Of a DNA stretch of 26,019 bases, positions 1-26,019 are shown in pieces (position 1 is the stretch's first letter; every line of letters begins with the position of its first letter). Both the position numbers and the translations under genes were made by a program. The notes beneath the pieces are model-generated. The model was not told where the DNA came from and searched no databases. It saw only the letters and a program-made list of their open reading frames with translations. The stretch is taken from positions 1 to 26,019 of IMG/VR virus record IMGVR_UViG_3300031772_000245; one strand, written 5' to 3'. This DNA is from a virus.

Positions 1-1
1 A

Positions 2-97
2 ATACCCGGCACCTATAGCGAGATGGTCAGAATCAGTTCTCTTGAGGCTTCCAATTCCCCTCAGGACATAACCGTCAGTCTAATCGTCAACCCTTAA
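2..97 (+). CDS. C-terminal end of an Ig/BACON-like virion protein (partial)
   Basis: An open frame enters from the left edge and stops with TAA at 95-97, giving 31 residues. They end in an alternating beta-strand pattern with a tyrosine early on (GTYSEMVRISS), then NSPQ, then DITVSLIV. That spacing, G-x-Y-x3-V-x-I-x-S then NSPQ-x-I-x-V-x-L-x-V, is what the last two strands of a BACON or similar Ig-like beta-sandwich look like. Such domains are common on phage surface, tail and capsid proteins, often as tandem copies. Only the end is visible, so the main function of the protein cannot be judged. The assignment rests on pattern recognition of a short stretch. Confidence 0.55.
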   Translation: MPGTYSEMVRISSLEASNSPQDITVSLIVNP

Positions 98-132
98 ATC
101 CTTCATACGGTCTCTTGTCTGGAGGCCTATTT

Positions 133-393
133 ATGTCTAAGGACTTTGAAGTCAATGCATCAAGCTCTATCGATGAGTTTTTTAAGTCACCTCGTCATTC
201 CTCTGTAGCTTCATCGATTCAGAATAAGATTCGCATGGCATCCGCTGATCAAATCCCATCGGGTTTTGTGCGGATTGCTAGTGATTCTTTGGTCCGACTT
301 TCCCAGCAAGATTTCTGGAAAGTTGGTCAGGATGATAGTGGTTTTTTCATTGAACGTCTCGTCGACGACGAAGATGGACCGGTTGCTGGTTAA
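133..393 (+). CDS. Small phage protein, unknown function (86 aa)
   Basis: ATG at 133 is chosen because a GGAGG Shine-Dalgarno sequence lies at 121-125, seven bases upstream; an in-frame TTG at 115 lies before that site and is unlikely. The 86-residue product has a Ser-rich N-terminal half, then a compact segment (SDSLVRLSQQDFWKV) and an acidic C-terminus. There is no signal peptide or membrane segment. It contains two R-x-A-S tetrapeptides (232-243 and 271-282), a motif recurring across the virion genes of this window. It is followed 12 bases later by the next gene with a strong ribosome site, so the two are co-transcribed. I do not recognise a family. Confidence 0.75.
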   Translation: MSKDFEVNASSSIDEFFKSPRHSSVASSIQNKIRMASADQIPSGFVRIASDSLVRLSQQDFWKVGQDDSGFFIERLVDDEDGPVAG

Positions 394-405
394 TTAGGAG
401 GATTC

Positions 406-1644
406 GTGGACGAGAAGAGCCTCCATAAGATTGCTCGGCGTGTGGCTTCCGGGAGAATCCGCACCGCTGGGATGATCGAGTTCAAAAAGGACCAGGGTCC
501 TATACGTCGAGACCTTAGGTCTCCTGGTTTCGAATGGACGGATAATGCTCTTCGCGATCTAGCTAAAGTTCTTTGGGCTTCTCAACGAGCCCATAGTTAT
601 GCATTATCTGCATATCAGACGTTCTCGAAAATGCAGTCCGCCCAATTTAGTCCTGACGGACTCCTTGGCGGTCGTGGTTATATCCAGTCTATAAAGGATA
701 TGAGAAGCTCTATGGCGCAGGCCGTTGAGGTTTTCAGTTCTTTTACCGATACTATCCAAGATGAAATAAATGCTGATCATTGGAGTAAGTCTGGAAGAGA
801 AGATGAAGAGACTTCCGAGCTTATCGACAATGCTGAAGAGATAAAGAAAGATCCGGAAACATTCGTTGAATCCGAATATGTTGATTCCGTCACCTCCGAA
901 CCAGGGGAGAATGATAATTATTTTGAATCTGGAGAGTATGAAGAGGAGCCCGTCGAAAATCCAGACGCCGATGATTTGAATCCTGAGCTTGCAGATTCAG
1001 ACGATTCAGATGACGACGATGATGACAATAATGACGACGACCTCCCAGAAATAGAAGGTTTCCATACTTCCTCCTCTTTGAGAGATCGTTATGACTACGG
1101 AGAGGAGTCCCCTAAGGCTAGTCTCCCGAATGATGAAACAGATCAGAGTTATGGGCAAACTGAATCAGAACTTCTGATGCATACTACGACCCCAGACCGG
1201 GGCAATATTGCTGGAATCAATAGATTAATTCGCCGTCATATGGCCAATTCTTCTGTTGACCCGAACACTCTCCCTGGACCTAGAGTTGAGCATCTCGGGC
1301 CTGCTTCATCTGAATCCGGGGTTTGGGCCGACGGCGATCCTTATGGTTCCGATGATCCAATGGGCAATAATTTATTCTCCGGCACTGACGACACCAATCC
1401 CCTTTATGAGGATTATTGTGCAGATGGTGTTAGTGCGTACGATACTCCCACCGATGGGGATTCTTCCATATTTAAAAAAGCTAGTTACTCAAATCTTCCT
1501 GGTGCGGATAATAAGAAAATTCTCCCGATATATGATTTAGGTTTATCAAGCCAAGATGTTGATCTCATACTGGCTGATCATGACGAAGCGGACGATGCTG
1601 GAGAACATAAGGATATGAAACCTTATAACTGGGATTTAGAATGA
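406..1644 (+). CDS. Acidic-linker phage protein, unknown function (412 aa)
   Basis: A GTG start at 406 is supported by AGGAGG at 396-401. Residues 1 to about 125 look folded and mostly helical, with an R-V-A-S motif at residues 12-15. The rest is low complexity and strongly acidic, including a run of Asp/Asn around residues 200-216, and is rich in Pro, Gly, Ser and Tyr. The C-terminal 20 residues form a second conserved-looking block ending in YNWDLE. The stop overlaps the next ATG by four bases (ATGA), indicating translational coupling. The position upstream of the packaging genes suggests a virion or assembly role, but no family is recognised. Acidic linkers of this kind are frequent in scaffolding and internal head proteins. 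Confidence 0.8.
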   Translation: MDEKSLHKIARRVASGRIRTAGMIEFKKDQGPIRRDLRSPGFEWTDNALRDLAKVLWASQRAHSYALSAYQTFSKMQSAQFSPDGLLGGRGYIQSIKDMRSSMAQAVEVFSSFTDTIQDEINADHWSKSGREDEETSELIDNAEEIKKDPETFVESEYVDSVTSEPGENDNYFESGEYEEEPVENPDADDLNPELADSDDSDDDDDDNNDDDLPEIEGFHTSSSLRDRYDYGEESPKASLPNDETDQSYGQTESELLMHTTTPDRGNIAGINRLIRRHMANSSVDPNTLPGPRVEHLGPASSESGVWADGDPYGSDDPMGNNLFSGTDDTNPLYEDYCADGVSAYDTPTDGDSSIFKKASYSNLPGADNKKILPIYDLGLSSQDVDLILADHDEADDAGEHKDMKPYNWDLE

Positions 1645-2708
1645 GTTCTGGACTCCCGGCTGATGATTCTGTATCCCGTCTTCTTCAGGACTTTGGTATA
1701 GGAATGTATGACTCAGACGTCTCCAACGTTCGTGGAGATTCTGATGATTTAGGTTCCGAACGTAATTCAAATGGTATATCAATCCCTGACGGAGGGGGTC
1801 CAGAGTCCGACCCTCCAGAACTTATGATTGGATATCCAATATTATCTTCTGATCTAGATGACCTTGATAGAGTTCTAGCCGCTATCAGCCTTCCTGGTGA
1901 TGTTGAACGTCCATCCATACGTTCAAAACGTCCGGCTGAAGATGTAATCGATGATCGTCTTCCTACTGTAGCCGATTCCGGTCTTCCGGATGATCATGAC
2001 AATCCTGCTGCTAGAACCGATTATTACGATCATATGACAACTAGTACTAGAAAACAATCTCTAGAGACTTCTCCATACTGGCCTGATGAAGATACCTCGG
2101 TATATGGCCAGGAGTCTCTTCCGAAAGTACCTAGTAACGAAGTTACTATGGACAATGATTTGGGCGCACTTGGTAACTACTTAAGTGGTTATGAAGTGGA
2201 AGATATATCAGGCCCGAATGGTTTTCCTTCTGAAGATTTTACTCAGAACGTTGACTATTCCCGTTCTAACGATGGAACTTCCGGTGGAAGCCTTATAGCT
2301 TCTAAATTGACGAGGGCAAGAATGAATAGAACTGCAACAAATATTAGCCTCGTTGATGATTTGACGAAGGAATTCCTCAAGGATTTCGGTAAGAAAGACT
2401 TGACTCGTCGTCACGTCATGACATTTCTTCAACAGAAGAATTCACATCAATATTTGGCTTCCGATATTGTTCGTAATTTGATGATACGGCACAATGTGTA
2501 TGTGAAAGATGTTTTGGATGAGTTCCCCGAGGGGGAACTCATACAGGATGGACGTAAGTCCATGGCATCAGTTCACGATAAACTTATTGAAGTTTCAATC
2601 TCGAATTTCAGGGACCCCGAGGTCGCCAACACAGTCCGTCGCTCTGCGGCTTCTGTTTCTACTGCTATAGCTCTACTTGAGAGGATTGGTGTCTTCAATG
2701 GCCGGTGA
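1641..2708 (+). CDS. Phage protein with disordered N-terminus, unknown function (355 aa)
   Basis: ATG at 1641 overlaps the previous stop (ATGA). The N-terminal 220 residues are acidic, rich in Asp, Ser, Pro and Gly, and probably disordered. Residues about 225-355 are basic and helical, with segments such as RHVMTFLQQKN and SDIVRNLMIRHNVYV that could form a small helical DNA- or protein-binding domain. Its layout (long acidic stretch plus one folded end) mirrors the preceding gene, so the pair may work together. No catalytic motif, membrane segment or zinc site is visible. The 3' end overlaps the start of the next gene by 11 bases. Confidence 0.78.
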   Translation: MSSGLPADDSVSRLLQDFGIGMYDSDVSNVRGDSDDLGSERNSNGISIPDGGGPESDPPELMIGYPILSSDLDDLDRVLAAISLPGDVERPSIRSKRPAEDVIDDRLPTVADSGLPDDHDNPAARTDYYDHMTTSTRKQSLETSPYWPDEDTSVYGQESLPKVPSNEVTMDNDLGALGNYLSGYEVEDISGPNGFPSEDFTQNVDYSRSNDGTSGGSLIASKLTRARMNRTATNISLVDDLTKEFLKDFGKKDLTRRHVMTFLQQKNSHQYLASDIVRNLMIRHNVYVKDVLDEFPEGELIQDGRKSMASVHDKLIEVSISNFRDPEVANTVRRSAASVSTAIALLERIGVFNGR

Positions 2709-4645: not shown

Positions 4646-5248
4646 ATGGGTGATGAAAAAGATACTGATTCTCCAGTAATCGAAGGGAAACTAATACAGT
4701 TCCCTTCGAAAAATGATATTGATATGGCAGAGATAGGTGTTAATTACGCCTCTCCTGTTTCTGCCAAAGATAATGAATATATACCTACTCTCTCTGATTT
4801 GAAAAAAATGGAGAAGGAGTTTAAAGAACGTGAGGAGTTTGTTAGAACTCAGGCTCTTGTTCAATCATCAGATTTAAAAATAAATCCTGTAGATCTTTCT
4901 GATCTTTTGATCAGAGAAATAGTAGAAGAACTATCTCATTTGAAATGGGAGAGACAGAAGTTAGCTAAAGCGGGAAAGTATGCTACTAACCAATCAGTTA
5001 GTCGTATAGCCGCCCTTAAGCAACTCTCTGAAATCCTTTCAAAAAGAATAGAGAACGCTAGAAATGAAAGACTTGATCTAAGGTCTCCTCGTTTCCAACA
5101 GGTTCTAAATCTGTGGATGAATTTTCTTTATGAATCTATGAAGAAAGTTAACCTGAACGATCAAGAAATAGACCTAGTTTTCGCCCAGATGAAAGCTGAT
5201 ATGCTAGATTGGGAGAAACTGTTGGTTGATCCTTCGGATAAACCATGA
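4646..5248 (+). CDS. Helical protein directly upstream of terL (200 aa); small-terminase candidate
   Basis: ATG at 4646 has only a weak upstream ribosome site. The N-terminal 45 residues look flexible; the remainder is nearly all charged helix and likely coiled coil, with stretches such as LSHLKWERQKLAKAGKY and the C-terminal FLYESMKKVNLNDQEIDLVF. Its stop codon overlaps the terminase ATG by four bases, so synthesis is coupled to the motor protein. In many phages the small terminase subunit sits just upstream of the large one and is helical and oligomeric, so this is a positional candidate. No recognisable helix-turn-helix is seen and I have no sequence match, so the role is an inference. Confidence 0.75.
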   Translation: MGDEKDTDSPVIEGKLIQFPSKNDIDMAEIGVNYASPVSAKDNEYIPTLSDLKKMEKEFKEREEFVRTQALVQSSDLKINPVDLSDLLIREIVEELSHLKWERQKLAKAGKYATNQSVSRIAALKQLSEILSKRIENARNERLDLRSPRFQQVLNLWMNFLYESMKKVNLNDQEIDLVFAQMKADMLDWEKLLVDPSDKP

Positions 5249-8200
5249 GTTCTAAAGAACCAGTACAGAAAAGCCTCCTTACCGGAACTGTAGACTCTTT
5301 TCTTAATCAGAAAAAAAGACAACAGTCTGAAACTGAAGGAAAATCTGAAGGTGATGTAGAATTTATCACCATCATAGAATTTGTCGATAGATTTAAACTT
5401 CTTCCATATGGTTTATTCCCTGCCCAAAAATTCATACTTAAATTATATTATGGATTACCTCTAGATGGTGATCTAAAATCAATAAAAATAACTGATAAGT
5501 TCAATAAGATAATTCTTCATGAACTTACCGAAAAAGAATATCTTGCATATTTATACGATAACGGGAGATGTAATATAAGAGTCCAAGATGGGAGGATAAG
5601 GAATGAACTCATTCTGGTAGCTGGCAGACGAGCTGGTAAAAGCGAAATAAGCAGCATAGTTTGTGCGTATGAAATATATAAATTAATTTGCAGAGGGAAT
5701 CCGCAGGCATATTACGGTATGCCTGCCAGCTCTGAAATCCGCGTTCTTGATATTGCTAATGATAAGGATCAGGCCTCAATAGTTTACGGAAATATGCAGG
5801 GTTATATCGGTTCAATAGATTATTTCAAAAGTTCAAATACGCATGACACCCAATCCTATATGAAATTCAGGTCTGATGGTGATAGAAAGAAATTTGGTCC
5901 GGAAGGAAAATGTATAATTGAGGGCTCTCTTGTTTTAACTAATCGTGGTCTTTTATCGATTGAATCTTTTGGGAATCCGACTGGTCCAGAATGGCAAGAC
6001 ATTAACTTTAAGGTTGCTCAGGAAGGGAAATCTGTACACGAATTTGCTACAAATTTCTATAGTGGTGGTGAACAATTAGTAAAGAAATTGGTCACGAAAA
6101 ATGGTTATGAATTATCTGCCACTCCAGAACATAGAATTAGAGTTCTTTCCTCAGACGGGGAAATAGTGTGGAGACAATTTAATGACATAAAAATCGGTGA
6201 ATTTATTGGAATAAACAGGTCTACTAATCTGTGGTCTGATTCTTATTTTCAGACTTCTGAATTTGTGAACGAATCTCTAAATAAATTCGATGATTCGTTT
6301 TCCTTAAAGATTGGAAAATTTATAAATTGGATTGGTGGCATCGAAGGCCCCGTGGATATGACAGTATCCGAGGTTTGTGATTTGATTGGAGTAGCCTCTT
6401 TAAGGGGTGTTCTTTCTCATTTGAAGTCAATTGGATTTGATGTTCGGAAGACTGTAAAATTAAGGAAATTTGGTGCCGGTTCTACCGTTCGATGGTATCC
6501 GACAAAAATAGAATGGGATAAAAATGCAGGAAAAAATACAAAGTCCATAAATTTTCCGGAATTTCTTGATGAAAAATGGGGAGAAATTCTTGGTATATTG
6601 ACAGGTGATGGTACGTGGAATTATAAGAGTGGTATTGAGATCACAGGTGGATGTAAAGAATTTAAAAAATATTTGATTGATTTATTTAATGAGAATTTCA
6701 GCAATCATAAAATATTTTATAAGAAAAAATCTGATAATGCGTGGCAAATCAGGTCTTATTCGAAACCACTTCGCAGATTTTTGGAGAGACTTGGTTATGT
6801 AAAATATAAACCATCTGATAAGAGAGTTCCATTTGTTATTTTTCAGTCTCCTCGCTCTGTGGTAGCTTCCTATCTTCGCGGTCTTTTCGAAACTGATGGA
6901 ACAATTAATGAAAATGGGTTAGGCCTCTCTTTTTGTACCGCATCACACCGTTTAGCTTCTGAAGTTCAACTTTTGCTTTTAAATTTTGGTATTATATCCA
7001 ATCTTCGAAGTAAATATAACAGAAAGTATGATAAATACTATTATGATTTGATGATTATTGGAAATAATTCTTATAATATATTCAAGAAAGAAATTCGCTT
7101 TATAACAGATAGAAAGAACTCCAGACTTGATTCGATTCGCGCAAATAAGAATCTTGAGATGATTCCGAATCTTAACATTCAGTTGAGGAATATTATTAAT
7201 AATATTCCTCAACGTACAAGTAGTAAGTTAAAAACAAGGTTTATTAAACTCGCTGGAGACGCAGTAGATTCGAAGCGGAATTCTGGAATATCATATATAT
7301 CACTACGTGGATGTATTGAAATCGCCCGAGAAGCAAACATTGATGATTCATTGATCAAGAATTTGGATCATGTACTTAACACTTTCTATTATTGGGATCC
7401 TGTTAAGTCCATTACTGACGATAAGAAAAAAGTATATGATTTATGTGTTCCGAGTGGTTCTTCTTTCGTATCTCAAGGAATGACGAACCATAACTCGACT
7501 ATAGTTTCTTCCTTCAAAAGTTCGATAGCTAAGGGCCTCCGTGGTCGCGGCGTTATCTGTGCCGTTTTAGATGAGATAGCTTTCTTTATTGATAATGGAC
7601 ACAGCTCCGCTGAAAAGGTTTATCGAGCTTTAAATCCATCACTTGCTCAGTTTTCTCCTAAAGATCCCAAGGATAAACATATACCAATAGGAGAGACCCA
7701 TGGAAGAATGATTTTAATATCATCTCCTGATTCAAAAGAGGGTTTTTTCTATAATCAATATCTCAAAGCTATGTCCAATGATCCTGGATCTGCCAATATG
7801 TTGGTCATCCAGGCCCCCACGTGGGAAATTAATCCAACAATTTCCCCATCTTATTATGAAACTGAATTTTATAAGGACCCTGCTTCATTTAGAACAGAGC
7901 ATGGGGCTGAATTTTCTGATCGTGTTCGTGGTTGGATCGAAGATGCTGTTGATTTAAATACTATAATTGACCCTCTTCTTCGTCCAAAATTTAGGGGTTT
8001 ACCCAGGGAAGTACATTTTGCCGGAGTGGACTTTGGATTATCGAAAGATGGAACTTCCATAACTTTAACCAAATTCGCTAGTGGAAAAGTTGAACTGGTT
8101 TATCATGAAATATGGTATCCCAGAATTAGATGGAGAGATTCAAATCCACATTTGAATGATCCCATCAATCCCTATGCTCTAACTATTCATGAAACAAATC

Positions 8201-8775
8201 GTCTTGATATAGATCAAATAGCCGATTGGTTTTCATCATTGTCAAAATTATTTTATATACATAAAGGGATCTTCGATCAGTGGGCCGGGCCTGTCTTCGA
8301 GCAGATTCTACATAAAAAGGGCCTTGAACAATTTGAAATGAGGAATTTTCACACTTCAGATTCTTCATATATGTACCAGAATTTCAAAATGATGATGTTT
8401 AATAAAAGACTTTCTCTCTATGATTGGCCCATCCCGGATCCTTCAGAAACTGGAGGCTCCAGACATTCTCCATTAATTCAAGAGCTTCTCGAACTCCAGG
8501 CAACCTCTGCTGGTAAGAACATGATAATAGTAGAAGCCCCGAAAGTTGTTGGGAAACATGATGATATGTCCGATTCTCTTGCTCGTTCAGTTCTCCTGGC
8601 CTCGGAGTACATAAAAGATAACCCTAGCGCTCTTGACGTTAATCACATATCGGGAGTATCCGCTTACGCCCCCAGGATAGCTTCCGGTTCGCATGGTCAG
8701 TATCATAGAATGAAAGCTCGAATTCATGGGGTCAACAGAGATCGCATTCCGGGCATGAGGCAAAGGGTCCGCTGA
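5245..8775 (+). CDS. terL: Terminase large subunit, interrupted by an intein (1176 aa precursor)
   Basis: This is the packaging motor ATPase and nuclease that pumps DNA through the portal and cuts the concatemer. Walker A is GRRAGKS at residues 127-133. Walker B is VLDE at 774-777, with a hydrophobic lead-in. The RNase H-like nuclease begins with GVDFGLS (D929) and ends with HDDMSDSLA (D1106/D1107/D1110 region), the usual Asp positions for metal binding. An intein occupies residues 223-750; removing it leaves a 648-residue protein, a normal TerL length. The junction is K222|C223 on the left and N750|S751 on the right, between the two ATPase motifs. ATG 5245 overlaps the upstream stop. The C-terminal tail holds an R-I-A-S motif (R1144). 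The stop codon lies inside a terminator-like hairpin. Confidence 0.96.
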   Translation: MSSKEPVQKSLLTGTVDSFLNQKKRQQSETEGKSEGDVEFITIIEFVDRFKLLPYGLFPAQKFILKLYYGLPLDGDLKSIKITDKFNKIILHELTEKEYLAYLYDNGRCNIRVQDGRIRNELILVAGRRAGKSEISSIVCAYEIYKLICRGNPQAYYGMPASSEIRVLDIANDKDQASIVYGNMQGYIGSIDYFKSSNTHDTQSYMKFRSDGDRKKFGPEGKCIIEGSLVLTNRGLLSIESFGNPTGPEWQDINFKVAQEGKSVHEFATNFYSGGEQLVKKLVTKNGYELSATPEHRIRVLSSDGEIVWRQFNDIKIGEFIGINRSTNLWSDSYFQTSEFVNESLNKFDDSFSLKIGKFINWIGGIEGPVDMTVSEVCDLIGVASLRGVLSHLKSIGFDVRKTVKLRKFGAGSTVRWYPTKIEWDKNAGKNTKSINFPEFLDEKWGEILGILTGDGTWNYKSGIEITGGCKEFKKYLIDLFNENFSNHKIFYKKKSDNAWQIRSYSKPLRRFLERLGYVKYKPSDKRVPFVIFQSPRSVVASYLRGLFETDGTINENGLGLSFCTASHRLASEVQLLLLNFGIISNLRSKYNRKYDKYYYDLMIIGNNSYNIFKKEIRFITDRKNSRLDSIRANKNLEMIPNLNIQLRNIINNIPQRTSSKLKTRFIKLAGDAVDSKRNSGISYISLRGCIEIAREANIDDSLIKNLDHVLNTFYYWDPVKSITDDKKKVYDLCVPSGSSFVSQGMTNHNSTIVSSFKSSIAKGLRGRGVICAVLDEIAFFIDNGHSSAEKVYRALNPSLAQFSPKDPKDKHIPIGETHGRMILISSPDSKEGFFYNQYLKAMSNDPGSANMLVIQAPTWEINPTISPSYYETEFYKDPASFRTEHGAEFSDRVRGWIEDAVDLNTIIDPLLRPKFRGLPREVHFAGVDFGLSKDGTSITLTKFASGKVELVYHEIWYPRIRWRDSNPHLNDPINPYALTIHETNRLDIDQIADWFSSLSKLFYIHKGIFDQWAGPVFEQILHKKGLEQFEMRNFHTSDSSYMYQNFKMMMFNKRLSLYDWPIPDPSETGGSRHSPLIQELLELQATSAGKNMIIVEAPKVVGKHDDMSDSLARSVLLASEYIKDNPSALDVNHISGVSAYAPRIASGSHGQYHRMKARIHGVNRDRIPGMRQRVR
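5911..7494 (+). mobile_element. LAGLIDADG intein in terL (528 aa)
   Basis: The intein starts at Cys (TGT at 5911, precursor residue 223) in an EGSLVLTNRGL block A. Block B is TPEHRIRV. It ends with a VYDLCVPSG block F and the HN|S junction (Asn at 7492-7494, Ser +1 at 7495). These are the residues that splicing needs: Cys1, the block B His, the terminal His-Asn and a Ser nucleophile. Two LAGLIDADG motifs lie between: LGILTGDG at precursor residues 449-456 and LRGLFETDG at 544-552, both with the catalytic Asp, so the homing endonuclease looks intact. At 528 residues it is long for an intein; residues after the second motif probably hold extra DNA-binding sequence. Its codons are visibly more AT-rich than the flanking terL exteins, which fits later arrival. 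Confidence 0.95.
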
Positions 8776-9461: not shown

Positions 9462-12407
9462 ATGGCAAAGAAATCTGTCGGCGTCAATCCGCCCAAAAAC
9501 TCGAAAAATTCTATGCCTGTCATCAAGGTTGATGAACAGGATATTTCTCGTACCAAACTGACTAAACTTGAGAGATTGGCTAAACTCCAATCTCAGCAGT
9601 CTGTTCGCCTTGGTTCAGTTACCAATTTCGGAAACGCTTCTGGCGGTTCCATAAGGGACGCTGATTCTTCTTTCTACAGCCCTCAGCTATCCACAGACTT
9701 TTTAGAATTACCTCAGTCGGATCGCGAGAAACGAGAACTTTTTCGTTTCTGGTATCAAGTGCATCCGATAGTTGGATCAGCCATAGATTTCCACTGTTTT
9801 CCTCCAGGGGCTCCCGTATCTCTAATTGATGGGTCCGTTAAATTTATTGAGGACTTGAAAGTCGGCGATAAAGTCCTAAATGGATTAGGGGAAAAAACTG
9901 AAGTTGTCGGCACTTTTTCACACGATGTGGACACTTCAATCACCAAGATAAAGGTCCGTGGTGTTCAAGATATTATTGATTGTACACAGAATCATCCATT
10001 CCGGATCTATACTTCAGACCAAGTAGATTGCAAGTTCCCTAACATAGGAATGGGTGCTTGCAAAAGTGGTACTAAGAACCTATGTAAGCAGAGAAAATGT
10101 GAAGGAATTGATTTCGGTGCCTCGAAGTTTATTTTTGCCCAAGATTTGAAAGTCGGAGACTATATTTGCTCTCCCTCCATGGTAAGTTCTAATAAAGTAC
10201 TCAATAAGAATCAACTCCGTTTGCTTGGATATTATGCGGCTGAGGGGTCTTTATCCTATACAGATTATGGCAAGAATAGCCGGATTGAATTTACTCTTAA
10301 TTCCAATGGATTCAACACTGTTGCTGAAGAAATATCGAAGACTCTGATGTCTGAATATGAATATCCATCTACCAAAAAAATTAGGGAAGACTCTAACTCT
10401 TGTTATGTTAGAGTATATAGGAAGGATTTTGCGGATTTTTGTTCAGAACATGTTGGCAGTGGGTCTCTGAACAAAAAACTCAGTTCTGCTATAATGGATT
10501 CTCCCCGAGAAGACATTCTAGAATTTCTTGGTGCTTACTGGAATGGGGATGGATCCCTCACTAAGAATGGATATGTTGCTACTACTGTTTCAATGCAGCT
10601 TGCTCACCAGATCCATGCTTTGGCGTTGAAAGTCGGCTACGGTGCTACTCTGCATCGACATGTCCCTAAGACTTCTACCGGATTTAAATATACGGATTGT
10701 GTTTATAGAGTAATTGTTCCATATAAGTTTCATGAAGAGTTTTCAAAATATGCTAATTTTGTTCAAGATGGATACACCGCTGATTCGACTAGAGAATACT
10801 TCATTAAGATCGACAATGATATTTTGAGGAGAATTGAGTCGATTGAAACTGTCCATTATAAAGGTCCTGTTTATAATATAGAGGTTGATGGTGAAGGTGA
10901 CCGGAAAAGCTATATAGCTTATGGATTATCCACCCATAATACTGATGTGCCAATGTCTAAGCTACGTCTTTCTCTCCCAAAGGGGAAGGATGTTAAAAGA
11001 AATAAGCAAATACAGCAGTTCTTTCAGAGGATGTCACAACGCATTAGGTTATTCCAAACTCTCCATGAAGCAACACATGAATATTGGCTTCACGGAATAG
11101 TATTCTTGTTCGCTGAAGATCACGATTTGGTTCCGGAAATTCCAAAAGAATTAGTGGTTGATTCTGTCACTGAAACTTTAGAAGGTGTTGATTGGGCCGG
11201 TCGTTCGAATTCAAGAAATGTAGAAAAAAAGACTGTTAAGCCTGACGAAGAACTTTGGAAAAATATATCTGAATTCGTTCAAAAAAATTATCAGGGATGG
11301 CAGAGACTTCAAATTCTTCCTCCCGAACAGGTGAAAACCGAGGTATTTCAGTATACCAATCGTATGAAGATGGAATTAATTCCATCTGATAAAGATAAAA
11401 TGGTGGTAATGAAGGCTAAGGAAAATGATCCTGAAGCTCAAAAGATTGCTGACGATATACCGCATGAAATTAGAGAAAGTCTTGAAAATGGGACTCCCAT
11501 ACCTTTGAGTTCGAGCCCATATGATGATTATTTATGTTCTTCTTTCTGCTATCAATTAGCTCATAAGAAGAGTCCGTATGATACCCGTGGAATTTCACTT
11601 CTCGAACGATGCTTAAGGACACTTCTTAAGCAGGATAAACTTCGTCAGGCGCAGACAAGCATAGCTTCCCGTGCCATGACCCCTAAACGAATCGTTTGGG
11701 CGGATAAATTGTCTGAGGCCAACGTCGAGGATCTTCGTGATCAGGTAGATCAAGCTCTGATCGATCCCGATTTCACTATAGTAACTAACTTCGAAGTTCA
11801 TTGGGATGAAATTGGAGCGCGTGATCGTCTCCTTGATCTTTCCTCTGAATATGAGATGGATAATAAATTACTCTTTATAGGCCTTAGAATTACCGAGTCC
11901 ATGCTTACAGGAGAGTCTTCATATGCGGGCGAGCGCATTCATCTTGATGTCATGAATACCATGTATCTCCTATATCGGGAACAGCTTGCTGACTATGTTG
12001 AGAATTATCTCTTTCTACCTGTCGCTAAAAAGAAAGGTTTCTTTGAGATAGACGAAAACACTGGAGAGAAGATATATTTATATCCTCAACTCCAGTTCAC
12101 ACGTTTAGCTTTGAGAGATCAGGCTGACACCATGGATGTTCTCTTCAATTTATATCAGAAAGGGTCTCTCCCTGTTTCTTTCATTCTTGACCTTTTGAAT
12201 ATTGATCCTAGTGATACACTGGAACAGCTTAAGGCTGATATGTTTGGTCCCAATGATTCTACGTTCAATGAATTCATAAGAAATGCTCTCCAGAAGGCCG
12301 GAGATGCCGCTATTGATTCGACAAATATTATGGAAATAGTTGCCAGAAATGCCGGTTTGACTATTAAAAAACAGAAAGAAGAAGGTGATAGATTCGGTGA
12401 GGAATAG
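9462..12407 (+). CDS. Portal protein, interrupted by an intein (981 aa precursor)
   Basis: The portal forms the ring at one head vertex through which TerL pumps DNA. ATG 9462 follows a GGTGG-like site. Residues 112-493 are an intein; the mature extein is about 599 residues, fitting large-phage portals. N-terminal extein features include FWYQVHPIVGSAIDFH just before the intein and TDVPMSKLRLSLP just after it. Later segments are typical of portal wing and stem regions: LERCLRTLLKQDKLRQAQT, an ITESMLTGESSYAGERI block, and a C-terminal helical clip with LALRDQADTMDVLFNLYQKG. Gene order (terL, two small genes, portal, then protease, scaffold and capsid) supports the call. The splice junction is H111|C112 and N493|T494. 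Confidence 0.9.
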   Translation: MAKKSVGVNPPKNSKNSMPVIKVDEQDISRTKLTKLERLAKLQSQQSVRLGSVTNFGNASGGSIRDADSSFYSPQLSTDFLELPQSDREKRELFRFWYQVHPIVGSAIDFHCFPPGAPVSLIDGSVKFIEDLKVGDKVLNGLGEKTEVVGTFSHDVDTSITKIKVRGVQDIIDCTQNHPFRIYTSDQVDCKFPNIGMGACKSGTKNLCKQRKCEGIDFGASKFIFAQDLKVGDYICSPSMVSSNKVLNKNQLRLLGYYAAEGSLSYTDYGKNSRIEFTLNSNGFNTVAEEISKTLMSEYEYPSTKKIREDSNSCYVRVYRKDFADFCSEHVGSGSLNKKLSSAIMDSPREDILEFLGAYWNGDGSLTKNGYVATTVSMQLAHQIHALALKVGYGATLHRHVPKTSTGFKYTDCVYRVIVPYKFHEEFSKYANFVQDGYTADSTREYFIKIDNDILRRIESIETVHYKGPVYNIEVDGEGDRKSYIAYGLSTHNTDVPMSKLRLSLPKGKDVKRNKQIQQFFQRMSQRIRLFQTLHEATHEYWLHGIVFLFAEDHDLVPEIPKELVVDSVTETLEGVDWAGRSNSRNVEKKTVKPDEELWKNISEFVQKNYQGWQRLQILPPEQVKTEVFQYTNRMKMELIPSDKDKMVVMKAKENDPEAQKIADDIPHEIRESLENGTPIPLSSSPYDDYLCSSFCYQLAHKKSPYDTRGISLLERCLRTLLKQDKLRQAQTSIASRAMTPKRIVWADKLSEANVEDLRDQVDQALIDPDFTIVTNFEVHWDEIGARDRLLDLSSEYEMDNKLLFIGLRITESMLTGESSYAGERIHLDVMNTMYLLYREQLADYVENYLFLPVAKKKGFFEIDENTGEKIYLYPQLQFTRLALRDQADTMDVLFNLYQKGSLPVSFILDLLNIDPSDTLEQLKADMFGPNDSTFNEFIRNALQKAGDAAIDSTNIMEIVARNAGLTIKKQKEEGDRFGEE
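9795..10940 (+). mobile_element. LAGLIDADG intein in the portal gene (382 aa)
   Basis: The intein begins at Cys (TGT 9795, precursor residue 112) with CFPPGAPVSLIDGSVKFIED, a clear block A. Block B is TQNHPFRIY. The end is YNIEVDGEGDRKSYIAYG followed by STHN|T, giving the terminal Asn at 10938-10940 and Thr +1 at 10941. Two homing motifs are present: LLGYYAAEG (254-262, with Glu as acidic residue) and FLGAYWNGDG (355-364, with Asp). Between blocks B and C there is a cysteine-bearing insert (CKSGTKNLCKQRKC) that may bind metal. All splicing residues are present, so it should be active. It differs strongly from the terL intein in sequence and length, so the two are not recent duplicates. Confidence 0.94.
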
Positions 12408-18561: not shown

Positions 18562-19752
18562 ATGCGCGAGCGTCTCACCTGGCAGAAGAACTCAAACCCG
18601 CGTCAGGCGGCTACTCAGCGCCGGGCCGATATTTATGAAATGAATCAAGAGCATCCGCAACCCGGAGCGACCGACTACGAGTCGGGCAACCCGGACGAGT
18701 GGGCGGAGACTCCTGCATCGAATAAATCGGTTGAATTAGAATACGACGGCGATCACGTTAAGCGAAATGAAATCGGCCTTCCCGAGTTCCGTGCTGACAC
18801 ATGGGATCACAAGGATTCCGATAAGTGGAACGGCAAAGGCAAATACGACAACCAGCGTCTTGCTACGGAGCAGCGTGCGCGTCTTGCGATGAGAATCGCG
18901 AGCCATGCTCTCCGTACAGACAACAAGACGTTGGTCGAGCACGTTGCTTTGAATCTAATGGGTGCCCCCGATAAGGTGCTCGTTTCGATTGCCACAGGCA
19001 TTAAATCGGCTTCTCCTGATTCACTTCAGGGCGAGGTTCGTTTCCGCCGCTCACTCGCTTGCACCAAGATTGCCGCTCGTCTTCTCGGCGAGAATGGCAA
19101 CGACGAGGAAGCCACGAAGCTTGCCATCGTCATTTCGTCGGTGGATGATCCCACTCTTCGAAAGATCGTTTCCTTAGTCCGCACCTCGCAGAAGCGAGTG
19201 GCGGCTGAGGGTGATGCCGAGGATAAGCCCGAGGAGCACGCTGCAGCTGAGAAGGCTGATGACGAGCCCAAGAAGGATGAGCCCGTGGCTGCCATGGGAA
19301 AAGAAGAGGAAGATTGCGACACCGCAATGGATCAGAATGATCCTAATGCTTTCTCAGCCGCCGAAGCAGCTGAGCTTGAAGCGCTTCTTGGCGAGCAGGG
19401 CGAGTCTGGCGATGCCGCTCTCATGCAGCTCTTCACTCCTCCCACTCCCGCAGCTCCTGTGGTTGATCCCGTCATGCCCGTGATGGTGGCTTCCGACCTT
19501 GAGATTTCGTTCGACCAGGATGAAGCTCCCGAGGCGGCTGCTTCCACTCAGATCGCAAGTCTTGATGACTTGTTTGCTGACAACGACGAAGTCCGGGCCC
19601 AGCGCCAGATTTCAGCTGCCCAGTCCGAGCGCACAGCTCGTGAACTCGGCTTCGGTTCGGTTGGCCGTACCGCTTCCGCAAAGAAGCTTGGTCAGGTCAC
19701 TCGTACCGCTTCCGTGAAGCCCGAAGATCTTCTTTCGAAACTCTGGGGCTGA
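18562..19752 (+). CDS. Acidic scaffold-like prohead core protein (396 aa)
   Basis: ATG 18562 has a strong AGGAGG at 18547-18552. The product is highly charged: a basic helical middle (RLATEQRARLAMRIASHAL), then a long Ala/Glu/Asp/Pro-rich acidic region (about residues 215-355), then a basic tail. This profile and its position between protease and major capsid gene fit a scaffolding or prohead core protein that shapes the capsid and is later cleaved. R-x-A-S occurs at R111, R369 and R381; the last two bracket a short segment close to the C-terminus, a possible conserved capsid-binding tail. GC-rich, well-adapted codons suggest very high expression. Role is inferred from composition and order, not from a motif. 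Confidence 0.78.
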   Translation: MRERLTWQKNSNPRQAATQRRADIYEMNQEHPQPGATDYESGNPDEWAETPASNKSVELEYDGDHVKRNEIGLPEFRADTWDHKDSDKWNGKGKYDNQRLATEQRARLAMRIASHALRTDNKTLVEHVALNLMGAPDKVLVSIATGIKSASPDSLQGEVRFRRSLACTKIAARLLGENGNDEEATKLAIVISSVDDPTLRKIVSLVRTSQKRVAAEGDAEDKPEEHAAAEKADDEPKKDEPVAAMGKEEEDCDTAMDQNDPNAFSAAEAAELEALLGEQGESGDAALMQLFTPPTPAAPVVDPVMPVMVASDLEISFDQDEAPEAAASTQIASLDDLFADNDEVRAQRQISAAQSERTARELGFGSVGRTASAKKLGQVTRTASVKPEDLLSKLWG

Positions 19753-20662: not shown

Positions 20663-21556
20663 ATGACAAACCCATTCGGTACTCAGGCAGTCGACAACTC
20701 CATTAAGGAGAAAATTGTCGATCAGTTCATCGGAACCTCGGCAGGGCGCAAGCGTCTTGCGGCATCGATGGTTCAGCCCCTCCGCGAGCGACGCGACTAT
20801 TCGTCGGTTGGCCGTAAGACCTTCTTGGTCGAGCAGCTTCCCGACGGTGCGCTTCCTCTTTACGATAAGGACCCCGATGTGGTCGCTTACGTAATCGGTG
20901 AGGAAGGCGAGAGCATCACGGCAGTGGCGAAGCCCCGTCGTGTGATCTTCCCCCTCTTCGAGATCGCGGCTCTCCCCAAGGCCCCTCTTACGCAGGTCAA
21001 GGAGCGTCGTTATGACCTCCTCAAGCGTATGCAGGACCTTGGTAAGGCCCAGATCCAGGCCGCAGAAGACGACCGCGTCTTCTCAATCCTGGACGCCATC
21101 GCCGTCAACGGCTTCGACTCGCTTCCTGGCGGGACGAACCCCGACGTGCCCGTTGTGGCCCCCATCTCGCCTGCCATCCTCGCGGATGCGTTCGCCGAGA
21201 TCGAGCGTCATGATCTTCGCGTTGCTCGCGTGTTCATGAATGCCGTGGACTACAGCGACATCCGCAAGTTCGGTCGCGATGTCTTGGACATCGAGAGCCA
21301 GGGCGTGTTGTGGAAGTCGGGCGTGATGCAGTCGGGCTGGAACGCCCAGTTCATCGTGTCGCGTCTTGTGCCCGCTGGCGTGGTTTACCTCTGCTGCGAG
21401 CCCGAGATGTTCGGTCGCATTCCGGTGCGTACTGAGCTGAGCATCCTTTCGGCGGATAATCCCGAAGAAAGGACTATAGGTTTTTCTATGTTCGAGAATC
21501 TCGGCATCGGAGCCTACAATCCTCGTGGTTTGGTCCGCTTGATCGTTACCCGTTAA
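20663..21556 (+). CDS. Major capsid protein, HK97-fold type (297 aa)
   Basis: ATG 20663 has GGAAAGGA upstream; TTG 20639, overlapping the previous stop, is less likely. The sequence resembles major capsid proteins of large tailed phages: VQPLRERRDYSSVGRKTF, then FLVEQLPDGALPLYDKDPDV near the E-loop region, a spine-helix region with RYDLLKRMQDLGKAQIQAAEDD, an A-domain region around RVFMNAVDYSDIRKFGRD, and a C-terminal beta-rich end. At 297 residues it is short for the family and has no obvious inserted surface domain. Codon use is the most GC-rich in the window, as expected for the most abundant virion protein. Two hairpins follow the gene, the first with the TAA stop in its loop. Confidence 0.88.
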   Translation: MTNPFGTQAVDNSIKEKIVDQFIGTSAGRKRLAASMVQPLRERRDYSSVGRKTFLVEQLPDGALPLYDKDPDVVAYVIGEEGESITAVAKPRRVIFPLFEIAALPKAPLTQVKERRYDLLKRMQDLGKAQIQAAEDDRVFSILDAIAVNGFDSLPGGTNPDVPVVAPISPAILADAFAEIERHDLRVARVFMNAVDYSDIRKFGRDVLDIESQGVLWKSGVMQSGWNAQFIVSRLVPAGVVYLCCEPEMFGRIPVRTELSILSADNPEERTIGFSMFENLGIGAYNPRGLVRLIVTR

Positions 21557-22740: not shown

Positions 22741-23397
22741 ATGGACTCAGAATACATCGTCGAGGTCTTAGAAACTATATCAAAATATGTTGGCACATCT
22801 CCCGAAGACCTCGCTGTGACTGTCGCTTCCAGGTTAAACAACCCTTTCGCTGTTCTCGTGTCTACGATTCTATCTCTTCGGACCCGAGACGAGGTCACCG
22901 CTATCGTGACTCCTCGCTTTTTAAGCGCTGCTTCGACTCCCCAAGAGACCGTTCTTCTGACTGAAGAACAAATAGAGAACCTTATCTACCCGACCAGTTT
23001 CTATAGGATGAAATCGAAATATATATTGAACATTTCAAAAGATCTCATTTCTAAATTCGACGGCAAGGTTCCGGACTCAATGGAGGACCTTCTTACTTTA
23101 AAGGGCATCGGACGAAAATCTGCGAACTTAATTATAAATCTTGCTTTTAAGAAAGACGGAATATGTGTCGATGCCCACGTTGGAAGAATTGTTAATAGAT
23201 TAGGGTTCGTCCAGACTTCGGATCCCGAAGCCACCGAGTACGCCTTAATGTCTGTTTTACCTCAGAAATGGTGGATTCCGATCAATGGTGATTTCATAGC
23301 TTTTGGACGAAAAACATGTACTCCAACATCTCCCAGATGTTCTTCTTGTCCTGTTTCCCATCTATGTGAAAAGAATGGTGTTAAAAAATTCCGTTGA
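22741..23397 (+). CDS. nth: Endonuclease III (DNA glycosylase/AP lyase) with 4Fe-4S cluster (218 aa)
   Basis: This base-excision repair enzyme removes oxidised pyrimidines and cuts the abasic site. The helix-hairpin-helix is LKGIGRKSANLIINLAF, with the catalytic lysine at K126 and the catalytic aspartate at D144 in VDAHVGRIVNRLGF; the 18-residue spacing is that of E. coli Nth (K120/D138). The C-terminus has C193-x6-C200-x2-C203-x5-C209, the exact iron-sulfur cluster spacing. Length (218) is normal, so the enzyme should be active. ATG 22741 has no strong ribosome site. It lies in the accessory end of the window, beside unknown genes and a Cas12-like gene. A phage Nth may protect its DNA from oxidation or abasic damage. 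Confidence 0.93.
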   Translation: MDSEYIVEVLETISKYVGTSPEDLAVTVASRLNNPFAVLVSTILSLRTRDEVTAIVTPRFLSAASTPQETVLLTEEQIENLIYPTSFYRMKSKYILNISKDLISKFDGKVPDSMEDLLTLKGIGRKSANLIINLAFKKDGICVDAHVGRIVNRLGFVQTSDPEATEYALMSVLPQKWWIPINGDFIAFGRKTCTPTSPRCSSCPVSHLCEKNGVKKFR

Positions 23398-23922: not shown

Positions 23923-24312
23923 ATGCCCAGGAATGGTCAAGAAACCGCTTTGGAATGGTTGAGCCGCGTTTCTAGAGAGTCTAACGATTCAAACATTATT
24001 ATCCTTGCAGATTTCGCTGTTTCCCAATGGATAGATCTGAGCGAATCTTGGAAAGCCAGAGACGTTAAAACGAGAAGATCTCTTTGGGATTTGATGGCTG
24101 GAATCGAGCAGATCGGCCACAACACGATCCATAAGACGACAATGTCTACTATATATTCCGGTCCAAGTGTTTTCAATTTCCCGATTTTTCTTGAAGCGTG
24201 TCATTATCGAGGGAAAGAACCACCTGTTGGAGCCGTCGAAACTGGTGTGCGTGTTCATTCGCACAGGAGGCCACAGACTACAAAATGGGGAAATATTGTT
24301 TTAAAATCGTGA
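23923..24312 (+). CDS. Phage protein, unknown function (129 aa)
   Basis: ATG 23923 is preceded by CGGGAGA at about 23909-23915, a fair ribosome site. The first two thirds are helical (ALEWLSRVSRESND, AVSQWIDLSESWKARDVKTR, LWDLMAGIEQIG). The C-terminal third is basic and His/Arg-rich (TGVRVHSHRRPQTTKWGN), suggesting nucleic-acid or phosphate contact. It ends 39 bases before the Cas12-like gene. Because it directly precedes that gene it is a candidate partner or regulator, but there is no motif to support this. No family recognised. Confidence 0.68.
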   Translation: MPRNGQETALEWLSRVSRESNDSNIIILADFAVSQWIDLSESWKARDVKTRRSLWDLMAGIEQIGHNTIHKTTMSTIYSGPSVFNFPIFLEACHYRGKEPPVGAVETGVRVHSHRRPQTTKWGNIVLKS

Positions 24313-24351: not shown

Positions 24352-26019
24352 ATGGCATCTGCAGATAAGCTTCCGACCAGAATTTATACATTCGGTCTTC
24401 TGCCTCCAAAATCAGGAGGAGAAGCTCTCCATAGGATGTTGAGGGCTTCCTGTCATTATTACAACGCTCTGCTCGAAATCGAGCTTTGGAAGCGTAAAGA
24501 AACCGCCAAATTCTGGGCCCAGAGAGGCGGATACTCCGACAAGCTCGAACAGTTGGAGACTTTAAATGATTCCGTACGCAAGACGCCGGATGATGCGAAA
24601 CCTGTTCTTTATTCCCAGATTAAAGAACTTGAACTTCACATTCGTGAGTTACGGGAAGCGGTAACAATGAAGTCTCTTCCAAAGGAAGAAGCTCGACGCC
24701 GCGAACGCGAAAAAGAAATCAAAGCAGATTTCAAAAGTAGAAAAATCGTTCTCTCCAAATCAAGACTCATGGATCTTCTTGATTTGGAACCCGATTGTGT
24801 TTCCCCTCGTCGTCGTTTCCAGCTGAATTTTTCGGTAGACTCAGAAAAGCGCGGAGTGAAGCCGAGCGGGAAGCTTCTAAACAAGCTTCTTAAAGAAGCA
24901 AACCTTATCAAGACAACTCAACATATTGATGACCAGGTATCGATTGATATCGAGCGGGCCAAAAAATATTATGGTCTGTACTATGGCACCTACGCCCTAA
25001 TTGACGATGCTGTAGACCAGGCTTTAAGGACTTCGGATACTTTCCCGGCTTTCAAACGCTGGACCGGAGAAGGCCGTGTCGGGTCTCCTGTCAGTACAAA
25101 CGAGGGATTGAACGTTAGCTCAGTTCATGATTGTTCTTTCGAAAATGGTACTTGGGCTGATAAGGGGAATACTGTTCTCCAAATCGTAAAAATCCCGGAC
25201 GAAGTTTGGGAGCAAAAAACCTCGCGTGAAAAGGGCGTCGATGGTGAACCAAATTCAAGTTGGGTTCGGAAAACGCGTACCAATATGAGGATTTGTGTTG
25301 ATTCTCTTGGTCGAGCCAATCGTGGCAGACTACCCGTCTGGGTTGAGTTTCCTATCGTCATTCACCGTCCTCTCCCGAAAAACGGAAAAATTGTCGGTGC
25401 ATGGGTTTCCATATTCATGCGCGGTAATCGAACGAAATATGAGCTTCAACTCCAAGTTCAGGATGAGACTCATCTTCATCCAAAGAAGCCTCATGGTGAT
25501 GGGACCGTTGCTTTCAACTTCGGTTATCGATCAACTGGACGCGTGGCATATACCCTCGATGATACTAATTTTGCTCAGGAAATGACTGTTGATCCGAAGG
25601 TAGAGAAGAAGATTGATCTTGCGGACAAACGAAGACAGTCACGGGAGCTTGCTGCCAATGAAATGCGAGATTCCATCTTGAAATGGTCCAAGGACTGCAT
25701 TTTTCCTGATTCTTTTAGTAGGAATGATGGTAAGAAAATCATTATTCCTCATTGGTCAGGGGAGGAATCTCGTGCAAGAAGCTATAACGAACGCTCCTTG
25801 AGGAAGAAGATTGAACTTCTCCCTCTCGCGAAAGACGAAAGTCTTTCAAATAGACTCCATAGTGTTCACAACGAGTGGAAATTCGTTTTGGCCATGGATT
25901 CACTTCTTAGTTTTTTCTGCGGCCCGAATACTCTTGTTCGTCCAGAGGACAAAATAATTTTTGAGGAGCTAAATACTTGGACCTTTGACGATAAATCAAT
26001 CCAGAACCATGAAGCCGGG
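24352..26019 (+). CDS. Cas12m-like type V CRISPR effector (partial, 556 aa visible)
   Basis: An open frame runs from ATG 24352 off the window edge with no stop. The N-terminus (YTFGLLPP, then a helix with HYYNALLEIE) resembles compact Cas12 effectors. Residues about 60-150 are charged, probably coiled helices, as in a REC region. Residues 276-288 (LQIVKIPDEVWEQ) and 327-342 (LPVWVEFPIVIHRPLP) match segments I recall from Cas12m2 of Mycolicibacterium. RuvC-I is VAFNFGYRSTGR, with N389 where the catalytic Asp normally sits. RuvC-II is IIFEELN, with E538. The 149-residue spacing between them is close to what I recall for Cas12m. RuvC-III and the zinc ribbon would lie beyond the edge. TnpB is an alternative, but the N-terminal part before RuvC-I (about 380 residues) is too long. 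There is no strong ribosome site. Confidence 0.8.
   Translation, partial: MASADKLPTRIYTFGLLPPKSGGEALHRMLRASCHYYNALLEIELWKRKETAKFWAQRGGYSDKLEQLETLNDSVRKTPDDAKPVLYSQIKELELHIRELREAVTMKSLPKEEARRREREKEIKADFKSRKIVLSKSRLMDLLDLEPDCVSPRRRFQLNFSVDSEKRGVKPSGKLLNKLLKEANLIKTTQHIDDQVSIDIERAKKYYGLYYGTYALIDDAVDQALRTSDTFPAFKRWTGEGRVGSPVSTNEGLNVSSVHDCSFENGTWADKGNTVLQIVKIPDEVWEQKTSREKGVDGEPNSSWVRKTRTNMRICVDSLGRANRGRLPVWVEFPIVIHRPLPKNGKIVGAWVSIFMRGNRTKYELQLQVQDETHLHPKKPHGDGTVAFNFGYRSTGRVAYTLDDTNFAQEMTVDPKVEKKIDLADKRRQSRELAANEMRDSILKWSKDCIFPDSFSRNDGKKIIIPHWSGEESRARSYNERSLRKKIELLPLAKDESLSNRLHSVHNEWKFVLAMDSLLSFFCGPNTLVRPEDKIIFEELNTWTFDDKSIQNHEAG

What the first reader, a model, noticed from the sequence alone, without database searches (positions are those of the whole stretch)
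24352..26019. Phage-encoded compact type V CRISPR effector resembling Cas12m
The last gene reads as a Cas12 effector: Cas12-type N-terminus, a WED-like beta region with an IPDEVWEQ segment and a PVWVEFP...HRPLP segment that I recall from Cas12m, then RuvC-I and RuvC-II. Seen directly: the motifs and open frame. Established: type V-M Cas12m2 binds crRNA-guided DNA and represses transcription without cutting. Inference: this phage carries its own RNA-guided DNA-binding system, perhaps to silence rival phages, plasmids or host genes. Cas12m in a large lytic-type phage genome, beside a late head operon, would be noteworthy.
Basis: partly seen in the sequence, partly recalled or inferred. Interest (0 to 1): 0.92.

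Follow-up and report, generated by a model that had tools for sequence, protein, structure and literature searches.

The report
Megaphage Cas12m effector without CRISPR array
A very large bacterial virus carries an intact gene for a CRISPR-type protein that probably binds and silences DNA rather than cutting it, but unlike nearly all the relatives examined no stored guide sequences were found beside it, so where it gets its instructions is open.

Summary
The frame at 24352 is a real cas12m-type gene, cut by the contig end after 556 of 693 codons; the rest is in an overlapping contig of the same phage (IMGVR_UViG_3300032053_000263). Solved Cas12m chains lead by sequence, profile and predicted fold, well ahead of TnpB and Cas12f. 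The protein has the HCCC zinc finger of Cas12m2 and a RuvC triad of N389/E586/D680. By its capsid protein the phage is a phage-G-like megaphage (relatives on contigs up to 436 kb). Cas12m was found in 1 of 80 capsid-relative loci, and that one is the same phage. Phage-borne Cas12m is already in print, so the claim of a first is not supported. What stands out is the missing array: array-like repeats, or a repeat fitting the family model, were found near the gene in 52 of 57 non-redundant Cas12m loci, but in none of about 37 kb of this phage. Best reading: an RNA-guided, non-cutting DNA roadblock whose guides are encoded in the mostly unseen genome, or come from outside. New member of a known kind.

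The parts
24352..26019 (+). cas12m-like gene, first 556 of 693 codons (rest in L001:11669-12082)
25192..25215 (+).
   Evidence: stands where several relatives have a DPxAW-type segment in the alignment
25348..25380 (+). FPIVIHRPLPK (residues 333-343), a highly conserved block of the Cas12m family
   Evidence: P342 invariant, H338 and R339 at least 90% in the 50 rows
25498..25536 (+). RuvC-I region DGTVAFNFGYRST; Asn389 (codon 25516-25518) at the catalytic Asp position
25954..25974 (+).
   Evidence: lies upstream of the helix that precedes RuvC-II; the RuvC-II Glu is residue 586
20663..21556 (+). major capsid protein; marker of the phage-G-like megaphage group (context)
22741..23397 (+). endonuclease III-like HhH-GPD DNA glycosylase, upstream (context)
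23923..24312 (+). small ORF without a family match, ending 39 bases before cas12m (context)

Best explanation
The gene encodes an intact Cas12m-family (type V-M / V-U1) effector of a phage-G-like megaphage. It most likely binds a crRNA-like guide, opens matching double-stranded DNA and stays bound as a roadblock to transcription or replication, without cutting, because its RuvC site is N-E-D. The phage probably makes it during infection to silence genes of the host or of rival mobile elements. As no array or family repeat lies near the gene, the guides are most likely encoded elsewhere in the unseen part of the genome, less likely taken from the host or a co-resident element. Shown: family, predicted fold, triad, zinc finger, intact frame, no repeat found in the known DNA. 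Inferred: DNA binding, lack of cutting, guide source, timing, targets.
For: Full protein: PADLOC Cas12u1 2.3e-51 (a PADLOC model named Cas12f, PDLC01692, scores almost the same, 2.1e-50). phmmer against the PDB: five Cas12m sequences at 4.8e-18 to 4.9e-8 (one of them, 8pm4, named 'Transposase' there and Cas12m), next a Cas12f at 0.7. A 50-row profile with this protein first: Cas12m chains at 5e-180 to 6e-86, then an AI-designed nuclease and TnpB/Fanzor-type chains from 5.5e-18, in the C-terminal part. Model pLDDT 76.6, pTM 0.75; Cas12m2 8hhl Z 21.8 over 530 residues, GoCas12m 8pm4 21.6 over 523, best TnpB 15.4 over 336; Foldseek 1.3e-26 for Cas12m2, next family 7.5e-10. Zinc residues H651/C654/C670/C673 match the HCCC finger of Cas12m2 and D680 its Asp579 (PMC10442227 passages). 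N-E-D is among the triads that paper lists for Cas12m clades 3 and 4; PMC11013384 (passages) reports D-E-D, H-D-D and N-D-D Cas12m that bind and do not cut. Between the two contigs, 7 of 9 differences inside the gene are silent and the frame is open.
Against: No repeat of the family type in window + L004 + L005 (best 10.7 bits, E 1.7, inside another gene; 0 of 2 records), while the same model finds a repeat near the gene in 15 of 17 loci not used to build it. So a guide RNA for this protein is not shown at all. The protein has the longest end branch of the tree (2.49) and at most 27% identity to any of the relatives aligned, so its guide or activity may have changed. N-E-D itself was not seen tested in the passages read. 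No expression data.
Confidence: 0.6

Rival explanations
1. Guide thief or decoy: the phage carries the effector alone and loads it with crRNAs made from an array of the host or of a competing element, either to turn them against rivals or to soak them up as an anti-CRISPR.
For: No repeat in ~37 kb of this phage while 52 of 57 non-redundant loci have array-like repeats or a family repeat near the gene. PMC12669027 (passages) mentions a phage Cas9 with an inactivated RuvC that might act as an anti-CRISPR, so the idea has a parallel. A gene matching the anti-CBASS family Acb1 (30.8 bits, cut-off 27) lies about 1.4 kb downstream, so the stretch may hold other counter-defence.
Against: The host is unknown and no host array was identified or looked for. 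Most of the phage genome is unseen. Cas12m repeats differ much between lineages, so borrowing guides would need a matched host system.
Confidence: 0.2
2. Decaying remnant: a Cas12m gene that lost its array and no longer works.
For: No array found; longest end branch of the tree; Asp to Asn in RuvC-I; poorly predicted stretches at 135-174 and 451-522.
Against: Frame intact over 693 codons; zinc ligands, E586, D680 and the HRPLP block kept; 7 of 9 differences between the two contigs are silent; Asn at this place recurs in 13 of 55 tree rows, and the 12 others of these have repeats near the gene (9, 3).
Confidence: 0.13
3. A nuclease-dead TnpB-like regulator of the TldR kind with its own single guide RNA.
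For: Phage-encoded, RuvC-I Asp lost, no array found. [quoted passage not shown]
Against: Sequence, profile and fold all favour Cas12m over TnpB. 13 bases separate the stop from the next start codon and 39 the previous stop from the start, and no Rfam family reached its cut-off in the window or L001, so an adjacent guide gene would have to overlap coding sequence.
Confidence: 0.04
4. An active RNA-guided nuclease: E586 and D680 with Asn389 still support cutting or nicking.
For: Two of three RuvC acidic residues are kept; PMC10442227 (passages) says clades 3 and 4 may hydrolyse DNA, speaking of the canonical DED-type site.
Against: Asn replaces the RuvC-I Asp; characterised Cas12m with D-E-D, H-D-D or N-D-D did not cut dsDNA (PMC11013384, passages).
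Confidence: 0.06

Closest known systems
Cas12m2 of Mycolicibacterium mucogenicum (PDB 8hhl/8hio) and GoCas12m (8pm4), type V-M
   Same: Overall fold (Z 21.8 and 21.6), HCCC zinc finger (stated for Cas12m2), RuvC-III DQDR as in Cas12m2, non-canonical RuvC-I
   Different: N-E-D instead of H-D-D; 693 residues instead of 596 in Cas12m2; 16-24% identity in the structural alignments; in a phage; no array found nearby
Cas12m-like gene of Virus Rctr197k (KX853510, L002)
   Same: In a Caudoviricetes genome of 197 kb; only match among 50,697 phage records, 25% identity, 7e-27
   Different: D-E-D triad and an annotated CRISPR array starting 33 bases after the gene; ours has none nearby
Viral Cas12m with N-E-D: L010, L034, L026, L028, L035, L038
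   Same: Same triad letters
   Different: Not close kin by sequence; they carry repeats or arrays beside the gene
Cas12m gene of Allomeiothermus (Meiothermus) silvanus plasmid pMESIL02 (L016)
   Same: Same family; PMC11013384 (passages) studied a Cas12m of this species as a DNA binder; that it is this very gene is assumed from the species name, not checked
   Different: Plasmid-borne, D-E-D, downstream array
TldR (nuclease-dead TnpB regulators of phages)
   Same: Works-like comparison only: phage-encoded RNA-guided control of DNA (PMC13418256, listing only)
   Different: TnpB-derived (recalled), not Cas12m

Membership tests
Cas12m protein family (V-M / V-U1 effector) | Sequence profile closer to Cas12m than to any other Cas12 or TnpB | tested here: met
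   caveat: PADLOC PDLC01692, named Cas12f, scores nearly as well as Cas12u1
Cas12m protein family (V-M / V-U1 effector) | Cas12m fold including the helical REC insertion | tested here: met
   Prediction only (pLDDT 76.6): Z 21.8 over 530 residues to 8hhl against 15.4 over 336 for the best TnpB
Cas12m protein family (V-M / V-U1 effector) | RuvC triad of a type seen in the family | tested here: met
   N389/E586/D680; NED listed for clades 3 and 4
Cas12m protein family (V-M / V-U1 effector) | Zinc finger in the TNB domain (HCCC in Cas12m2) | tested here: met
   H651, C654, C670, C673
Cas12m protein family (V-M / V-U1 effector) | crRNA-guided dsDNA binding without cleavage | not testable with these tools
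   Needs protein and RNA
Type V-M CRISPR-Cas system (locus) | CRISPR array next to the effector gene | tested here: not met
   13 bases to the next start codon downstream, 39 from the previous stop; no array by k-mers or covariance model. Hence filed as a Cas12m-family protein, not as a complete V-M locus
Type V-M CRISPR-Cas system (locus) | CRISPR array somewhere in the same genome | tested here: inconclusive
   About 37 kb known of a genome whose relatives span contigs up to 436 kb
TnpB (IS200/IS605) | Best match to TnpB profiles | tested here: not met
   NCBIfam guided_TnpB 0.82 on the fragment; Cas12m far ahead
Cas12f | Best match to Cas12f | tested here: not met
   PDB Cas12f 0.7 against Cas12m 4.8e-18; fold E 7.5e-10 against 1.3e-26; the PADLOC model PDLC01692 named Cas12f is the exception
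TldR | TnpB-derived protein with an adjacent guide RNA gene (definition recalled) | tested here: not met
   Closer to Cas12m than to TnpB; no intergenic room beside the gene. No TldR sequence was compared

The most novel reading that the evidence does not exclude
A megaphage has taken the Cas12m effector alone, without its array, and uses it with guides supplied in trans: it loads crRNAs made by the host or a competitor (as a guide thief or anti-CRISPR decoy), or has evolved a guide RNA unlike the family's repeat. That would be a solitary class 2 effector working as a phage weapon or shield.
Probability: 0.2. Interest if true: 0.75.

Novelty: new member of a known kind. Interest (0 to 1): 0.42.

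Why it matters
Surveys that start from CRISPR arrays (such as PMC12607003, which took ORFs within 10 kb of viral arrays; passages) would miss an effector like this one. If Cas12m works without a nearby array, guides must come from elsewhere, which makes guide sharing between phage and host testable. The wider set collected here also shows many and very diverse Cas12m in viral contigs, with the RuvC-I Asp lost more than once and a strongly covarying repeat pseudoknot.

Tried and rejected
TnpB, Cas12f and TldR were considered and put aside on sequence and fold. Chance or frame artefact: rejected. An array just past the window end: rejected by reading on in L001/L004/L005. A structure-only descriptor (3-base stem I, 6-base stem II, AC end) gave 1 hit in the known DNA (about window 880-908, minus strand, inside the gene at 406-1644) against about 0.4 expected from letter shuffles, and rang in 7 of 8 control loci; treated as chance. 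An earlier stem-plus-AC scan gave 17 hits in G001 (some counted twice at two stem lengths) and 1 in window 1-2600, none looking like a repeat. The covariance model's weak hits in this phage are 10.7, 9.1 and lower; the 9.1-bit one (window 19351-19387, minus) has a full stem II and lies inside a gene. Self-targeting by spacers of three viral relatives (119 of 123 descriptor hits in G022, G024, G026): no clear excess over one shuffled set; the best matches in G024 are a duplicated spacer and a repeat matching repeats. Two relatives' arrays against 50,697 phage records: no match, or only the source record.

Limits. One alignment was too variable for a genome-contig scan, the next scan found no relative and the last one found one locus, so cellular Cas12m is thinly sampled: three plasmid genes and one Nitrospirota MAG. 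The tree is a quick one, without outgroup, with many open forks and long branches; it warns that this protein and L129 may be joined falsely. Mapping the Arg-rich pocket of Cas12m2 onto this protein was begun and not settled. Rows dropped: frames under 90 bits or without a long frame (L019, L160), L017 (not scanned), two cut-off proteins of the 57 in the tree (L154, L037). Near-copies at 95% identity were merged, but L026 and L028 (close) were both kept. 137 capsid-relative stretches were found, 80 are kept by the tool; 43 of these 80 hold at least 5 kb downstream of the capsid gene. One of the 80, L082, has a very weak profile match (2.7e-4 whole, 0.05 for its best stretch).

Full report
What was checked. 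The finding rests on the last, open frame of the window, 24352-26019. The window is the whole of a 26,019-base virus record. The in-window fragment has no meaningful Pfam match (0.18), a meaningless TnpB match (0.82), and clear PADLOC matches to Cas12u1 (2.9e-29) and to a model named Cas12f (2e-27); the four PDB sequences it matches up to E 10 are all Cas12m.

The complete gene. A viral-contig scan found the same phage in IMGVR_UViG_3300032053_000263 (34,906 bases, called G001 here), in which the gene is complete: 693 codons from the ATG, L001:10001-12082. The two contigs overlap over 23,476 bases with 10 differences. The full protein matches PADLOC Cas12u1 at 2.3e-51 and PDLC01692 ('Cas12f') at 2.1e-50, and five Cas12m sequences of the PDB at 4.8e-18 to 4.9e-8; the next is Cas12f at 0.7.

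Motifs. Alignments put Asn389 at the RuvC-I Asp, Glu586 at RuvC-II, Asp680 at RuvC-III, and H651/C654/C670/C673 at the zinc finger. PMC10442227 (passages) gives His317/Asp485/Asp579 and H549/C552/C569/C572 for Cas12m2 and lists NED among the triads of clades 3 and 4.

Relatives. Scans of viral contigs, phage and plasmid records and genomes gave 78 homologous frames at 90 bits or more, 57 after removal of near-copies: this phage, 51 other viral contigs, Rctr197k, three plasmids and one MAG. In the tree of 55 (two cut-off rows left out) this protein has the longest end branch and no starred set that holds it; its identity to the relatives aligned is at most 27%. Asn at RuvC-I occurs in 13 of the 55 rows, this one included; the tree needs 8 changes, and starred branches force at least 3.

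Fold. With an alignment of 50 rows AlphaFold2 gives pLDDT 76.6 and pTM 0.75. Foldseek ranks four Cas12m entries first (1.3e-26 to 3.6e-21), then Cas12f at 7.5e-10. VIA-align gives Z 21.8 (8hhl, 530 residues) and 21.6 (8pm4, 523) against 15.4 for the best TnpB. The family profile separates Cas12m chains (5e-180 to 6e-86) from the rest (5.5e-18 and weaker).

The missing array. A k-mer scan flags array-like repeats within 3 kb of the gene in 44 of 57 non-redundant loci; not each of these 44 was tested with the family model. Of the 13 others, a covariance model R1 built from 32 repeats finds repeats beside the gene in 8 (L142, L026, L028, L006 through its copy L007, L012, L040, L136, L011), some of them a single weak copy (L028, 16.7 bits). 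Thus 52 of 57. The remaining five are this phage, two mycobacterial plasmid genes (L015, L018; short repeated units seen by eye in the output, not found by the model) and two cut at contig ends. Of 17 loci not used to build R1, 15 have a hit of at least 16.7 bits near the gene; the misses are L015 and L018. In window + L004 + L005 the best R1 score is 10.7 bits, E 1.7. Whole-record search: 0 of 2 for this phage, while 8 of 8 relatives ring in the same mode at E 0.01 (three of these eight gave repeats to the model). De novo repeat searches show only repeats inside genes. The gene stops 13 bases before the next start codon and starts 39 bases after the previous stop. R1 could miss a repeat as different as the mycobacterial ones, and only about 37 kb of the genome is known, so absence from the genome is not shown.

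The phage. Its capsid protein is 75% identical to that of an uncultured 485 kb phage, 44% to Tunturiibacter phage Tunturi_5 and 37% to Bacillus phage G; most of the 203 matched records are mycobacteriophages at about 29%. A scan found 137 related stretches in viral contigs and kept 80, on contigs up to 436 kb. One of the 80 loci has the cas12m gene, and it is this phage (43 of 80 hold 5 kb or more downstream). Of 20 long relatives searched over their whole records, none has a Cas12m by single protein (the same query rings in G001) or an R1 repeat at 1e-3. A profile search of these 20 plus G000 and G001 found the gene in G000 (cut) and G001, with weaker C-terminal matches in G018 (four) and G010 (one). 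So the gene looks like a rare acquisition in a variable stretch between the capsid gene and the next virion genes, with an endonuclease III-like gene upstream and a 2H phosphoesterase matching Acb1 downstream.

How it most likely works. By family (PMC10442227 and PMC11013384, passages), Cas12m loads a crRNA, finds a PAM-flanked match and holds it, blocking transcription or replication. Asn389 makes cutting unlikely. Which guides it uses is unknown; an array elsewhere in the unseen genome is the simplest answer.

Novelty. Phage Cas12m is in print: PMC12607003 (passages) reports 24 viral effectors associated with Cas12m in landfills, found by looking near arrays; PMC7162821 (passages) reports type V-U variants in huge phages and suggests repression by a Cas14 that lacks a catalytic residue; PMC11656645 (passages) says V-M is enriched in plasmids and encoded by some prophages. 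Searches for Cas12m with phage (28 of 29 listed), type V-M or huge phage (15 of 392 listed) and orphan or array-less Cas12 with phage (15 of 115 listed) showed no title on a solitary Cas12m in a phage-G-like phage; bioRxiv and most subscription papers are not held. New member of a known kind, with the solitary arrangement as an open variant feature.

Noticed in passing
window 24571-25974 against G001: 9 of the 10 differences between the two contigs of this phage over 23,476 bases lie in the cas12m gene (binomial 4e-10), in two clusters; 7 silent, 2 not (S74A, T105I). Either a recombining strain variant or an assembly mixture near the contig end.
   Followed up: partly
A4 (32 repeats from Cas12m loci): Cas12m repeats share a pseudoknot: 3-pair stem I and 6-pair stem II, all 9 pairs with changes on both sides, 93% of cells paired against 64% shuffled and 24-44% when slid.
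   Followed up: yes
G026 (IMGVR_UViG_3300014656_000016), L171-L174; L010: Besides clusters around its cas12m gene, Cas12m-type repeats stand as solitary units from about 9 to 70 kb of a 112,670-base phage contig on both strands (25 model hits at E<=0.5; 24 descriptor hits against 3 in one shuffle), with at least two stem types. No self-targets found.
   Followed up: partly
G024 (IMGVR_UViG_3300032770_000005), L012 and L163: One 152,857-base phage contig with two Cas12m genes and 69 repeat hits at E<=0.01 in several clusters.
   Followed up: partly
L007:11753-13086: An array whose repeats differ from each other, several with matching changes in both stem arms (seen by eye; model hits).
   Followed up: no
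57 Cas12m proteins: Besides DED and the plasmids' HDD, viral Cas12m show triads NED, NDD, NGD, NEN, DND and DDD: the RuvC site varies repeatedly.
   Followed up: partly
window 5245-8775 and 9462-12407: Terminase large subunit and portal protein both carry intein-like insertions with LAGLIDADG domains.
   Followed up: no
L001:13513-14013: 2H phosphoesterase matching the anti-CBASS family Acb1 (30.8 bits, cut-off 27) as well as 2'-5' RNA ligase (35.4 bits); 9 of 80 capsid-relative loci, this phage included, have a homologue.
   Followed up: partly
L001:20354-21634, minus strand: Protein with matches to a treble-clef zinc domain, an MTES_1575 restriction fold (below its cut-off) and a Mom-like acetyltransferase.
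   Followed up: no
L002:2618-4513 (Virus Rctr197k): A second, transposase-like protein of Rctr197k stands beside a short annotated CRISPR array of its own, besides the Cas12m with its array.
   Followed up: no
G018 (the contig of L112): Four matches to the C-terminal part of the Cas12m profile, TnpB-like in extent, within about 14 kb of one megaphage contig.
   Followed up: no
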